Source: an uncultured Collinsella sp. (lineage in GTDB: Bacteria; Actinomycetota; Coriobacteriia; Coriobacteriales; Coriobacteriaceae). From it: DNA of 26,794 nucleotides. The stretch's first letter is position 1. Every line of letters starts with the position of its first letter. Both the position numbers and the translations under genes were made by a program. The stretch lies in contig CAAECP010000197.1 in the NCBI GenBank assembly GCA_900754385.1, positions 1-26,794 of the forward strand, given 5' to 3'. Below the pieces are notes generated by a model. It was not told the origin of the DNA. It saw only the letters and a list, made by a program, of their open reading frames with translations, and searched no databases. Positions 133 through 25,011 of this stretch are shown one piece after another.

Positions 133-457
133 CGTTCCTGCCAGGCTGTGGTTGCGGACGGACGAAATGTCCATCCTAGTCCAAGACAGACGCGGTCAAA
201 GGGATCCACGTAAGCGACCGCGTGCGCGCGGCGCGATCATGGCGCGTCCTAGATGTAAGCCGCACCGTCCGTTCTACTTTCTTTGGGGCAATACCGCCTC
301 GCGGGCGAGCGGGCCAGTCGTGAAGGTGGCTACGGCCTCCCGAGCAAACACCCCGGTGCGCAAGTGTGGGGTCAAATACCAGGTCAGCTGGTGGGAACAA
401 CCCGTTATTCCGCGCAACGCACGGATTGTATACGACACAGAAGGCAGGGTAGTGGAC
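133..457 (+). promoter_or_regulatory. Long GC-rich leader with nested helices (possible structured RNA)
   Basis: Between the promoter and the lipoprotein gene there is no convincing gene. Complementary segments nest as in a structured RNA: GCGGACGG (154-161) with CCGTCCGT (265-272); ATC-CTAG (173-179) with CTAGAT (249-254), one bulge; ACGCGGTC (190-197) with GACCGCGT (216-223), perfect; and a CGCG hairpin (232-235/243-246). The remainder to 457 is GC-rich with further short stems. No known riboswitch, T-box, tmRNA, RNase P or 6S hallmark was recognised. The reading frame is open through this stretch, but the lipobox of the next gene argues against translation from here. Confidence 0.35.
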
Positions 458-22051: not shown

Positions 22052-22102
22052 TTGTTCGTTATTGTTTGAATTGACGTGAGCGTGGAACAGCGAGGACTCA
22101 TC

Positions 22103-22867
22103 GTGATTAAAGCGGAGCGACAGGATAAGGTTCGGCAGCTGCTCGAGGAACAGGGAACGGTCTCGGTCAAGGAGATTTCGGATGCGCTAGGTGTCTCGGA
22201 TATGACAATCCGCCGTGACCTTGAGGAGCTTGCGAGCCTGGGCGAGATCGAGCGCGTGCACGGCGGAGCCCGCAGTGCACAGAGCCGTCCACACGCTATG
22301 CTGCGCCATGAGTATTCGCACAGCGAAAAGCGCACGAAGCATGCCGAGGAAAAGTTGCAGATTGCGCGCCGTTCTGTGGAGCTTATCGAGGAAGGCTCGA
22401 CCATCTTTTTGGGCACGGGCACCACGGTTGAGCAGATGGCCTCGATGCTGCCGGCGTTTCGCCTGCGCATTGTGACCAATTCGCTTTCGGTGTTTAACCT
22501 GCTCGAGGCGCGCGAAGACTGCGAACTGTGCCTGGTGGGCGGCGTGTACCGCCGCCGCACTGCCGCCTTTGTGGGCCCCACGGCCGAGGATACCTTGCGC
22601 GCACTGGGGATCGACGCAGCCTTTATCGGTGCCAACGGCATTTTGGACGGCGACGTGTCCACGTCTAACATGGAAGAGGGCCGCATCCAGCAGCTCGCCT
22701 TTAGCAAGGCCGACTCGCGCTATCTGATCGCCGATTCCAGCAAGATTGGCAAGCGCGACTTCTACACCTTCTGCCGTCTGGACAGCCTGGACGCCGTGGT
22801 GTGCGAGCCGGGCATCGCCGCCGAAGATCGTGCCGCCATCGAGGAGCATACGCAGGTCATTTGCTAG
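22103..22867 (+). CDS. DeoR/GlpR-family transcriptional regulator
   Basis: 254 residues, typical of the family. The N-terminal winged helix reads IKAERQDKVRQLLEEQGTVS, then VKEISDALGVSDMTIRRDLEELASLGEIERVHGGA, the DeoR signature. The C-terminal sugar-phosphate sensor domain has GSTIFLGTGTTVEQMA, LRIVTNSLSVF, LVGGVYRRRTAAFVGP and DSSKIGKRDF. Such proteins usually repress sugar genes and release DNA on binding a phosphorylated sugar. GTG 22103 is chosen as start: GAGGA lies 6 bases upstream and the protein then begins as its relatives do; GTG codons at 22076 and 22082 are poorer. It is divergent from galM (205-base gap), a likely target together with itself. Confidence 0.88.
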   Translation: MIKAERQDKVRQLLEEQGTVSVKEISDALGVSDMTIRRDLEELASLGEIERVHGGARSAQSRPHAMLRHEYSHSEKRTKHAEEKLQIARRSVELIEEGSTIFLGTGTTVEQMASMLPAFRLRIVTNSLSVFNLLEAREDCELCLVGGVYRRRTAAFVGPTAEDTLRALGIDAAFIGANGILDGDVSTSNMEEGRIQQLAFSKADSRYLIADSSKIGKRDFYTFCRLDSLDAVVCEPGIAAEDRAAIEEHTQVIC

Positions 22868-22907
22868 CTAACGCTGCAGGATTGCCAGCAAGCGTTGCGT
22901 GAGGACT

Positions 22908-22960
22908 TTCCCCCTGTCATTGTGGGGAATCGACGCGTCAGCGCTACGCGATATGACGCG
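22908..22960 (+). other. Small hairpins after the DeoR-type gene
   Basis: TTCCCC (22908-22913) pairs with GGGGAA (22924-22929), and CGCGTCA (22934-22940) with TGACGCG (22954-22960). Neither is followed by a T-tract. They fill the first part of the gap 22868-23298; the rest is the palindrome array. Confidence 0.35.
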
Positions 22961-22986
22961 CAAATGAGGACTCCACTATCAAATTG

Positions 22987-23282
22987 TTTCAACCTGTGAT
23001 ATCTAGGCGGCCAAAAGCGAGTCAGATGTTACAGATCGAGATTTTTGGCTCGGCCTATTCCGTTTGTCTCGATCTGTAACAGCTAGGACCGAAAAATTCA
23101 GCTAGTTGTTACAGATTGAGATTGAGAGGATTGACCTGTGCATTCATCTCAATCTGTAACATCTAGACGTCCAAAACCGGTCTTAGTGTTACAGATTGAG
23201 ACAATTCGGCGTGGTCTACCTTGTTTGTCTCGATCTGTAACGGTTAGGACTTAAAAACTCGGCTACGTGTTACAGATCGAGA
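22987..23282. repeat. Array of four 55-nt palindromic units separated by 25-26-nt spacers
   Basis: The 14-mer GTTACAGATYGAGA occurs in alternating orientation. Forward copies start at 23028, 23108, 23188 and 23269; reverse copies start at 23067, 23147 and 23228, with a degenerate one at 22987. Grouped as reverse-linker-forward they make four units of exactly 55 nt: 22987-23041, 23067-23121, 23147-23201 and 23228-23282. Each 27-nt linker keeps TAG at positions 4-6 and AAAA at positions 13-16. The spacers between units are 25, 25 and 26 nt. The period is 80-81 bases. Each unit can fold into a hairpin with arms of 14 to about 20 bp. The array sits between the 3' ends of two convergent genes. No cas gene is present; a REP/REPIN-like intergenic element is the most likely class. 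Confidence 0.93.
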
Positions 23283-23298
23283 CAAAAGAAAAAGAACA

Positions 23299-24018
23299 TT
23301 AGGACTTGAAAATAAAGTTTTGATAAGGGACCCGCCCAGTTAAGACGGTGCGGCAGACAATTGAGATTAGTTTGCCTCCGGAGTCGTAAGCATAATGAGT
23401 CAGTTCGATGACCGGAAGTTTTGCAACACCATAATTGCTGGCTTCGGAATCGCTAAGCTCACGTGCTCTATAGCTTTCTCTAACAGATTGGATAGACTTG
23501 GACAAGTCGTCCATGATTCTGCTAAATGCCTGAAAATCTAACTGGTTATTCGGAACGCGCGACTTTGAAATGAAGAACGTATCAGCGCCTATGAAGCTGC
23601 CTTCAAGTTCGTAGGTCAATTCAAGACGCTGAATCTCATCGCGACTTTGACATCCAAATTGTTGGAGCATCATTACGGAAATTGGACGACCTGATGTGAG
23701 GCCGCCGAAATGTTTGGTGATGGCATCCGGATCAACGCCATCGCAATGGCTTGCAAAGTCAAAGTCTAAAAGTGAATTGAGCTCGCTAACGCGTTTCGGT
23801 GCAACAAACGATCCCTTACCTTGGATTCGATAGATACTTCCACGACGCTCCAGCTCACTCATGGCAAGTCGGACGGTTGTTCTGCTTACGGCGTATTCGT
23901 CGCAGAGTTCCATTTCTGTTGGAAGTTTATCGTCTGCTTGATATTCATCGACGATCTGCTTGAGCAGCGCGTCGGTGAGCTGTAAATAGAGTGGCCGTTT
24001 TTCGTGTGTATCGAGCAT
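23299..24018 (-). CDS. GntR-family regulator, HutC/UTRA subfamily (second)
   Basis: 239 residues from ATG 24018, which has GAGG 5 bases upstream; an in-frame ATG at 24036 has poorer spacing and remains possible. The winged helix is clear: [18 protein letters not shown], then [44 protein letters not shown] (up to about residue 71). A UTRA-type effector domain follows, with [28 protein letters not shown], and a C-terminal [18 protein letters not shown]. It lies 72 bases downstream of the unknown TIM-barrel-like gene on the same strand and probably regulates that gene and the divergent PTS. A GGTTATACC dyad sits just upstream (24040-24048). Codon use is more AT-rich than in the left half of the window. 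Confidence 0.85.
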
Positions 24019-24090
24019 TAGAGCCTCAGTTTGCATGTTGGTTATACCTGATGGTTGCCTCAGTCGGGATGTAACGTGGGCAAGGTAACC

Positions 24091-25011
24091 TTAACGTATC
24101 ACAGAGCGGCTCAGCATGACGATCTGATGCCTGTATCCGCGAAGGGCTTGTCCGAGCGTGAAGATATTCTGGGGCAGGCAAATACCGTTCATGGAGTCCC
24201 CGATATGTTGGAGGTCAGCGCCGGCTGCTTTTGCTGCAAGGCCTATTTTCTTAATGGTCTCGCTGTCGCAGGAGTCTTGACTCGTCCCGTTCGCCGCCAT
24301 GACGAGAACCTTCTCTTCAATTGACTTGCCTACGTTGTGGGATCGTACAAAGTCTACGATGGCGCGCAGGTCTGCTTCTTGGAAGCAAGGGACGGTGTAG
24401 GGGGCTGGCACGAGAAGGATATCGACGCCGAGGTCAACAAACTTGCGCGCAATTTCGAGCGTCATGACAGGTTCCGCAACGCCCGCTCCATGCATTTTTC
24501 CGGCTATGACCAGGCCATTGAAATGCTCTTTGGAGAGTTTAATCGAATGGGCGATTGCATCGTTGGAGACGCCGGTTCCAGGGTTGCCCGTCAGGCAGAT
24601 AAAATCAAATCCGAGTTCGTTAGCCTTTTCTAAAGTCTTGGGTGAGACGCGACGACCCATGGGGATTTCCGTACGGGATTCAGACATCTCTGCCTCGTTA
24701 TCAACTGGCTCCAGATTGACGCCAATGGGCCTTCCGCATGCTCGCTTCACCCAAGTGACCGGGTTTTCATTGAGATCATCTGGAATACCGGCAATAACTG
24801 GATCGAACACATCGAGCGCGTTAAACAGAAGCAGGTCGGCACCTGCGGCACGTTCGATTTCTGCATTAGTAACGCCGCCGAGAAATTGGGAAGAGGGTAC
24901 GTTTTCCGCCATGATGGTACGTCCCTCGGAAGCCAGAATTGCCTGCTTTAGATCCATGGGTGACGTGGCGGCAAAATCGGATGCGGACATGTTCAGTAAT
25001 CGTTTGGGCAT
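24091..25011 (-). CDS. Uncharacterised TIM-barrel-like protein linked to PTS genes
   Basis: 306 residues. I recognise the type as an uncharacterised family often found beside PTS genes (DUF7916-like, from memory), not an enzyme of known reaction. Segments that look conserved are LLNMSASDF and ASEGRTIMAENV near the N-terminus, NAEIERAAGADLLLFNALDVFDP, GVNLEPVD, LEKANELGFDFICLTGNPGTGVSND, GKMHGAGV, FVDLGVDILLVPAPYTVPC and GADLQHIGDSMNGI. Alternating beta-strand and helix blocks ending in GAD or LEP motifs suggest an (alpha/beta)8 barrel. A sugar-phosphate or phospho-compound substrate is inferred from the context only. AAGGAAG precedes the ATG. It is divergent from the EIIC gene at 25368, with a 356-base control region between. 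Confidence 0.7.
   Translation of the reverse strand: MPKRLLNMSASDFAATSPMDLKQAILASEGRTIMAENVPSSQFLGGVTNAEIERAAGADLLLFNALDVFDPVIAGIPDDLNENPVTWVKRACGRPIGVNLEPVDNEAEMSESRTEIPMGRRVSPKTLEKANELGFDFICLTGNPGTGVSNDAIAHSIKLSKEHFNGLVIAGKMHGAGVAEPVMTLEIARKFVDLGVDILLVPAPYTVPCFQEADLRAIVDFVRSHNVGKSIEEKVLVMAANGTSQDSCDSETIKKIGLAAKAAGADLQHIGDSMNGICLPQNIFTLGQALRGYRHQIVMLSRSVIR

What the first reader, a model, noticed from the sequence alone, without database searches (positions are those of the whole stretch)
22987..23282. Four-unit palindrome array with CRISPR-like geometry but no cas genes
Four units of exactly 55 nt, each an imperfect palindrome with GTTACAGATYGAGA ends and a linker keeping TAG and AAAA at fixed positions, alternate with 25-26-nt spacers at a constant 80-81-base period. 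The outermost left unit is the most degenerate, as at the trailing end of a CRISPR. Against CRISPR: spacers 1 and 3 still look related to each other, and no cas gene is near. A REPIN-like element, a protein-binding array or a transcript-end element between convergent genes are all possible. The strict spacing implies selection or recent tandem duplication.
Basis: seen in the sequence. Interest (0 to 1): 0.75.

Follow-up and report, generated by a model that had tools for sequence, protein, structure and literature searches.

The report
Paired-site DNA arrays in Collinsella aerofaciens
A gut bacterium group, Collinsella aerofaciens, carries short arrays of mirrored 14-letter sites whose spacing is kept almost to the letter while the DNA between them changes freely, which looks like a docking rail for an unknown DNA-binding protein rather than a CRISPR.

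Summary
In detail: four 55-nt units at 22987-23282, period 80-81, the leftmost degenerate. It is one of a genome-wide family. 22 of the 43 Collinsella genomes held (the C. aerofaciens clade) have 24-63 units each, in 17-18 intergenic arrays in the two genomes counted; the other 21 have 0-1. Paired half-sites (TCTCRATCTGTAAC / GTTACAGATYGAGA) lie exactly 41 nt apart in 470 of 476 cases and alternate in orientation. Between species most arm positions barely change. The 27-nt linkers change as fast as flanking DNA but show 5-13 times fewer gaps. The two arms vary independently and several linker columns are less self-complementary than chance. So selection holds DNA half-sites and their geometry, not an RNA hairpin. 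No cas gene was found nearby, no unit occurs in the viral contigs, and the transposase (RAYT-like) genes examined hold no half-site. Arrays lie between genes in all orientations. Best reading: multivalent binding sites of an unidentified, highly specific DNA-binding protein, probably a chromosome-architecture or operon-boundary system. An old selfish REPIN/MITE-like origin remains possible. The protein and the function are not shown.

The parts
22987..23041 (.). unit 1 (left arm degenerate, right arm GTTACAGATCGAGA exact)
23042..23066 (.). inter-unit spacer 1, 25 nt
23067..23121 (.). unit 2, both arms exact
23122..23146 (.). inter-unit spacer 2, 25 nt
23147..23201 (.). unit 3, both arms exact; its 43-nt core is identical (reverse complement) to G015:C1:1409791-1409833
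23202..23227 (.). inter-unit spacer 3, 26 nt; related to spacer 1
23228..23282 (.). unit 4, both arms exact; identical (reverse complement) to G015:C1:1409704-1409758
22076..22867 (+). left neighbour, DeoR-type regulator (PF08220, PF00455)
23299..24036 (-). right neighbour, GntR-type regulator (PF00392), convergent with the left one; its stop lies 16 nt from the array

Best explanation
Each 14-mer is the core of a half-site of roughly 24 bp (consensus WWYR-TCTCRATCTGTAAC-A-nn-TAG) for a sequence-specific DNA-binding protein. Two inverted half-sites with their starts exactly 41 bp apart, about four helical turns, and an A-tract at the midpoint form one docking unit. Mostly two to four units at an 80-81-bp period form a multivalent rail. 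Such rails (17-18 in the two genomes counted) sit between genes in every C. aerofaciens-clade genome held, where they most likely let the protein assemble a fixed-geometry nucleoprotein complex that organises or insulates the chromosome between transcription units. Shown: the geometry, purifying selection on half-sites and on linker length but not on most linker sequence, the lack of arm covariation, the intergenic placement, the clade restriction among the genomes held. Inferred: the existence of the protein, its oligomeric form, and the architectural or boundary role.
For: Spacing between half-sites with at most one mismatch, found without assuming it: '<>' 41 nt in 470 of 476 (42 in 5, 40 in 1); '><' 39/40/38 nt in 175/121/8 of 304; no '<<' or '>>' at 15-75 nt. 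With two mismatches allowed ten same-orientation neighbours appear, all 32 nt apart, in look-alike sequence of one recurring unit type. 44 orthologous unit clusters, 391 units: deviation from cluster consensus in left-arm columns 1-3 and 7-14 is at most 2.0%, in the mirrored right-arm columns at most 5.8%, in the R/Y columns 27-28%, in linkers on average 14.0%, in spacers 16.5%; columns 15, 41 and 27-29 are also slow (2.8-5.1%). 245 orthologous array pairs: linker substitutions 0.114 per site against 0.097 in flanks, gaps 0.0016 against 0.0080 (0.00065 against 0.0084 in the 212 pairs with the same half-site string). Arms independent: GC 100, AC 85, AT 85, GT 85, other 2 of 357 distinct units; 11/11/11/11 of 44 cluster consensuses. 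Columns 16/40, 23/33, 25/31 and 27/29 are complementary in 6, 8, 5, 5 of 44 against 14.0, 18.3, 14.0, 20.5 by permutation. Half-site preferences outside the 14-mer occur at both inner and outer ends. No array of 149 lies wholly inside a predicted gene; 21 of them are at a locus edge. Array edge to start codon: median 178 nt, 10th percentile 89 (n 145); to stop codon: median 61 (n 153). Flanking genes of the G015 arrays are of many kinds. 22 of 43 congeners with 24-63 units, 21 with 0-1. ClpB is 99-100% identical in 9 of 9 array-rich genomes tested and 83-92% in the 20 of 21 array-poor genomes that matched.
Against: No candidate protein was found: ParB-family genes do not separate array-rich from array-poor genomes, and no other candidate regulator or architectural protein was profiled. 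Chromosomal positions are not significantly uneven relative to dnaA (KS p 0.06 and 0.09 in two genomes), so an ori- or ter-linked role has no support. In co-directional gaps the sense strand shows a slight excess of matched arms (75 of 129, about 64 expected from the margins, not independent; convergent 60 of 116, divergent 49 of 115), which a hairpin could also give. An RNA copy of the window array folds strongly (z -10.4), as an inverted-repeat array would. Y1_Tnp genes are in 22 of 22 array-rich but only 15 of 21 array-poor genomes. Convergent gaps are over-represented, which would also suit a transcript-end role. Arrays are missing at single loci in some species, so no single array is indispensable. 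Gains and losses were not polarised.
Confidence: 0.5

Rival explanations
1. A REPIN- or MITE-like selfish element: inverted ends mobilised by a transposase (RAYT or other) in the stem of the C. aerofaciens clade, now mostly vertically inherited and perhaps co-opted.
For: Overall shape matches REPINs: two conserved inverted ends, less conserved spacer whose length matters, intergenic, some tandem clusters (PMC3116915, passages). Y1_Tnp genes in 22 of 22 array-rich against 15 of 21 array-poor genomes. Bimodal copy number between clades.
Against: Eight of the 11 Y1_Tnp places of three array-rich genomes were fetched; none of these 4.0-4.5-kb stretches holds a half-site with up to 2 mismatches. 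All six places in G015 and G042 lie over 100 kb from the nearest listed half-site; distances in G025 were not settled. Two of four stretches examined show inverted repeats of other sequence around the gene. Arms show no compensatory change, whereas the REPIN paper reports common compensatory changes. Neighbouring units are mostly dissimilar. Arms stay conserved at orthologous sites while linkers drift, which past mobility alone does not explain. Of three empty sites aligned, none shows an obvious target duplication (one search is a poor alignment).
Confidence: 0.2
2. RNA element: bidirectional transcript-end hairpins, terminators or mRNA stabilisers.
For: Convergent gaps are enriched (50 of 149 against 9-17% of array-free gaps, depending on the length class); edges lie close to stop codons; strong predicted RNA fold; slight excess of matched arms in co-directional arrays.
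Against: Arms vary independently and several linker columns avoid self-complementarity; linker length is fixed, though a hairpin loop would tolerate indels; 46 of 149 array gaps are divergent; no terminator-like site in 22700-24200.
Confidence: 0.1
3. Operator arrays of one transcriptional regulator controlling a regulon.
For: Multivalent inverted half-sites resemble operators; divergent gaps are used; the window array lies between two regulator genes.
Against: 50 of 149 array gaps are convergent and array edges stay a median 178 nt from starts. Flanking genes of the G015 arrays include gltB-like, clpB, dxs-like, thrS-like, tuf-like and sugar genes with no common theme (names by eye from protein starts).
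Confidence: 0.12
4. Degenerate CRISPR without cas genes, spacers acquired from invaders.
For: Regular repeat-spacer period and a degenerate end unit.
Against: Units and linkers are conserved at orthologous sites; no unit in viral contigs; no phage-record match to the region; no cas-like hit beyond weak HTH-type matches; 17-18 arrays with the same arms in each of two genomes counted.
Confidence: 0.01

Closest known systems
REPIN / REP doublets with RAYT transposases (PMC3116915, passages)
   Same: conserved inverted ends, less conserved spacer whose length matters, intergenic, some tandem clusters
   Different: no arm covariation, no half-site near the RAYT-like genes examined, units in one array mostly dissimilar, arms selected at fixed orthologous sites, 14-mer not itself palindromic
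BIME (bacterial interspersed mosaic elements): regularly spaced REPs in alternating orientation that bind several proteins (start of the abstract of PMC2817692, search listing)
   Same: alternating orientation, regular spacing, intergenic, possible protein binding
   Different: the arm is not a short palindrome; found in divergent gaps too; only 17-18 loci in the genomes counted, against over 100 REPs per genome in that abstract; very strict geometry. Gyrase binding of BIMEs is recalled and was not tested
Chromosome-organising site families such as matS/MatP or parS/ParB (recalled)
   Same: dispersed, highly specific protein sites under selection
   Different: long paired asymmetric half-sites in arrays; one narrow clade; no ori or ter confinement shown; no known protein
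CRISPR array
   Same: regular repeat-spacer look, degenerate end unit
   Different: no cas found, no invader match found, both arms and linkers vertically inherited

Membership tests
REPIN/REP | ends pair as a hairpin, with compensatory changes | tested here: not met
   one search shows a slight non-independent excess of matched arms in co-directional arrays only
REPIN/REP | physical linkage to a RAYT gene | tested here: not met
   8 of 11 Y1_Tnp places in 3 of 22 array-rich genomes fetched, no half-site up to 2 mismatches; other genomes not examined
REPIN/REP | conserved inverted ends, poorly conserved spacer | tested here: met
REPIN/REP | presence of a RAYT-like gene in genomes with the element | tested here: met
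   22 of 22 array-rich genomes have a Y1_Tnp match; not shown to be one orthologous RAYT, and IS200-like matches are included
BIME | regularly spaced repeats in alternating orientation | tested here: met
BIME | built of REP palindromes | tested here: not met
   the 14-mer is not self-complementary (sequence)
BIME | binds gyrase, IHF or Pol I (recalled) | not testable with these tools
   no binding data
CRISPR | cas genes in the neighbourhood | tested here: not met
   8 window proteins scanned, only weak HTH-type matches; the rest of the window was not scanned with that library
CRISPR | spacers matching mobile elements | tested here: inconclusive
   region has no phage-record match; whole units absent from viral contigs; the only match among plasmid records is a 900-kb C. 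aerofaciens record that itself carries such arrays; linkers not searched one by one
Rho-independent terminator | short G+C-rich stem followed by a T run | tested here: not met
   0 found at 22700-24200
parS/ParB-type centromere | dedicated clade-specific ParB-family protein | tested here: not met
   a ParB match in 42 of 43 genomes, array-rich and array-poor alike; extra weaker matches on both sides

The most novel reading that the evidence does not exclude
An undescribed, clade-specific chromosome-architecture or operon-boundary system: a protein that reads a half-site of about 24 bp and assembles on inverted pairs at a fixed four-turn spacing into multivalent rails between operons. It arose in the stem of the C. 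aerofaciens clade and is selected for geometry rather than linker sequence.
Probability: 0.35. Interest if true: 0.78.

Novelty: new variant of a known kind. Interest (0 to 1): 0.62.

Why it matters
It is a clean natural example in which DNA geometry, separate from sequence, is under selection across many species of a human gut bacterial clade. If a protein binds these rails, it would be a new high-specificity architectural or boundary factor with a built-in evolutionary control: congeners without arrays, and stray copies outside the clade, one of which is visibly broken. It also warns that CRISPR-like or REPIN-like geometry can have another cause.

Tried and rejected
CRISPR remnant: rejected. 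Local satellite: rejected, since the same geometry recurs in 23 groups of loci (some groups hold more than one array). RNA hairpin: disfavoured by arm independence and fixed linker length. RAYT linkage: not found in three genomes, although the gene-presence correlation is told above. ParB-like partner: no distinguishing copy. Ori/ter bias: not significant. A different array of the same design in the relative G029: none found in 400 kb around its dnaA with a word-pair detector that recovers the motif in 114 kb of G015 array regions. The first gap comparison (174 pairs, 1 linker gap) was biased because units were defined by exact spacing; it was redone without that assumption. A first clustering of linkers merged 319 of 357 units into one cluster, so its column table was not used. 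Three of nine proteins sent to Pfam had no family and gave no lead. The looser core with two mismatches also gives 1-2 matches in six other genera, as the reversed control pattern does in some genomes; taken as chance. The 15-mer alone is in 86 viral-contig stretches, none as a unit. Plasmid records: one match, a 900-kb C. aerofaciens record labelled plasmid, with 31 places; its annotation in the 45 kb seen is mainly sugar metabolism, regulators, defence and toxin-antitoxin genes and hypothetical proteins, and whether it is a true plasmid was not tested. Paper searches: the four 14-mers as text gave 0 papers; the other searches with Collinsella listed nothing that names this element, by titles and abstract starts.

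Full report
What is there. Window 22987-23282 holds four 55-nt units, TCTCRATCTGTAAC - 27 nt - GTTACAGATYGAGA, separated by 25, 25 and 26 nt. Seven of eight arms match the consensus exactly; the left arm of unit 1 is worn. The array lies between the ends of a DeoR-type and a GntR-type regulator gene. Chance is excluded for the 14-mer (12 matches with up to 3 mismatches, 2.6 expected, 0 of 100 shuffles).

It is a genome-wide family. The exact unit, with linkers of 12-42 nt allowed, occurs in 24 of 98 related genomes, all of one genus (0 of 55 outside it). With a looser core (9+9 nt, one mismatch) 22 of the 43 congeners held carry 24-63 units and the other 21 carry 0 or 1. Genome G015 has 81 half-sites with at most one mismatch, nearly all in 17 arrays; I counted 18 arrays in G042. 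The array-rich genomes form a tight group: ClpB is 99-100% identical in the 9 tested and 83-92% in the 20 of 21 array-poor genomes that matched. Single copies outside look stray. G022 carries the window's DUF7916 and GntR gene order followed by a broken array. G014 has one unit, near what looks by eye like a tRNA, whose linker equals one of G015. G029 has one unit upstream of clpB; at that place 8 of the 9 array-rich genomes have two or three and G007 has none.

Geometry. With half-sites of at most one mismatch and no assumption on spacing, '<' to '>' is 41 nt in 470 of 476 cases and '>' to '<' is 39, 40 or 38 nt in 175, 121 and 8 of 304; two half-sites of one orientation never follow each other at 15-75 nt. 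With two mismatches ten such neighbours appear, all from one unit type whose arm and linker imitate the other arm. Most arrays hold 2-4 units (1 unit 19, 2 units 64, 3 units 65, 4 units 23, 5 units 2, 8 units 1, of 174, orthologous copies included). The half-site extends beyond the 14-mer: W W Y R outside, and A, TA(G) and an A-tract at the unit centre inside.

Selection. In 44 orthologous unit clusters (391 units) left-arm columns 1-3 and 7-14 deviate by 0-2.0% and the mirrored right-arm columns by 0-5.8%. The R/Y columns toggle at 27-28%, column 4 at 16% and column 52 at 10%; linkers average 14.0% and spacers 16.5%. In 245 orthologous array pairs (of 387 candidates; the rest fell below 75% identity) linker substitutions (0.114 per site) match flanks (0.097), while linker gaps are 28 in 18,012 sites against 572 in 71,849. 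Restricted to the 212 pairs with the same half-site string it is 10 in 15,411 against 519 in 62,183. Spacers lie between (49 gaps in 11,384 sites). An earlier version was biased by the unit definition. So the length of the linker is held, and most of its sequence is not. Pairs share ancestry and are not independent.

DNA, not RNA. At the one freely varying arm position the four combinations are nearly equal (100, 85, 85, 85 and 2 others of 357 distinct units; 11 each of 44 clusters). Four linker column pairs are clearly less complementary than by permutation. Against this, co-directional arrays show 75 of 129 matched arms, slightly above the 64 expected and not independent; convergent (60 of 116) and divergent (49 of 115) arrays show no such excess. 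The window array folds strongly as RNA, as inverted repeats must.

Placement. None of 149 arrays lies wholly within a predicted gene (21 of them at a locus edge); one in G015 overlaps a predicted gene end by 16 nt. Of 149 gaps with arrays 50 are convergent, 46 divergent and 53 co-directional; among 214 array-free gaps of 150-500 nt the shares are 9%, 32% and 59%, and over other length classes convergent gaps make up 10-17%. These counts repeat orthologous loci and rest on my own simple gene caller, which missed the window's GntR gene. Arrays keep away from start codons (median 178 nt) and sit near stop codons (median 61 nt). Positions relative to dnaA are not significantly uneven.

Turnover. 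Arrays fall into 23 groups by flank similarity; some groups merge neighbouring arrays. Unit number varies between species. Within arrays linkers are hardly more alike (0.50-0.53) than between loci (0.46); among the four arrays printed one recent duplication is plain, in L109. Of 43 rows of possible empty sites (several repeating one site) I aligned three; they show imprecise edges and no obvious target duplication, and one search is a poor alignment. The G029 site aligned is too diverged to show an edge.

Not a REPIN by the tests made. RAYT-like genes exist: Y1_Tnp in 37 of 43 congeners, namely 22 of 22 array-rich and 15 of 21 array-poor. That correlation counts for the rival. But the eight stretches fetched around such genes (of 11 places in three genomes) hold no half-site, and two of four examined are bracketed by other repeats. 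The REPIN paper (PMC3116915, passages read) reports compensatory changes and RAYT adjacency; neither was met here.

Mechanism. I commit to a protein that reads the half-site, bridges two inverted copies at a fixed four-turn distance, and assembles over 2-4 units between operons. Binding-type selection is strongly supported; the protein is inferred; an architecture or boundary role is the best guess because arrays occur in all gene orientations, neighbours share no evident function and start codons are avoided. ParB-family genes do not separate the two groups; no other candidate family beyond Y1_Tnp was profiled.

Noticed in passing
window 136-396 (+): A raiA RNA (RF03072, 145 bits) lies near the window start.
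   Followed up: no
L018 (genome G022), around 1500: The window's DUF7916-GntR gene pair appears in an array-poor congener with a broken array attached (one unit with a shortened linker, the next missing an arm), as if transferred and then released from selection.
   Followed up: partly
array flanks in held loci, e.g. L327 after the array; also the array-free site L369:12799: A second palindromic element, CCACCACAAAGGTGCCTGTCCCCTTTGTGGTGG (searched by its core), lies within 200 bp of 28 of 160 arrays (9 of 21 groups, median 35 nt away), with only 4 copies in 375 kb of array-free stretches.
   Followed up: partly
L185:1433-1483 and 2420-2470; L186:1425-1459 and 2311-2345: Two RAYT-like genes in G015 are bracketed by their own inverted repeats (GGGACAGAC-type and GACGGGGAT-type), so Collinsella seems to have separate RAYT-linked repeats.
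   Followed up: no
G025:C1:908140-908262 and 914740-914862 (L328): Two similar arrays 6.6 kb apart, perhaps from duplication of the region; weak DnaA-model (ATPase-like) matches lie between them.
   Followed up: no
L330:1640-1760 (genome G029): A 13-nt tandem satellite, CCCAACGCATCGG, in the relative G029.
   Followed up: no
window 23299-23312: A 14-nt near-copy (93%) of the unit-4 linker motif TTAGGACTTAAAAA overlaps the end of the GntR gene, 55 nt after the original; chance or a remnant.
   Followed up: no
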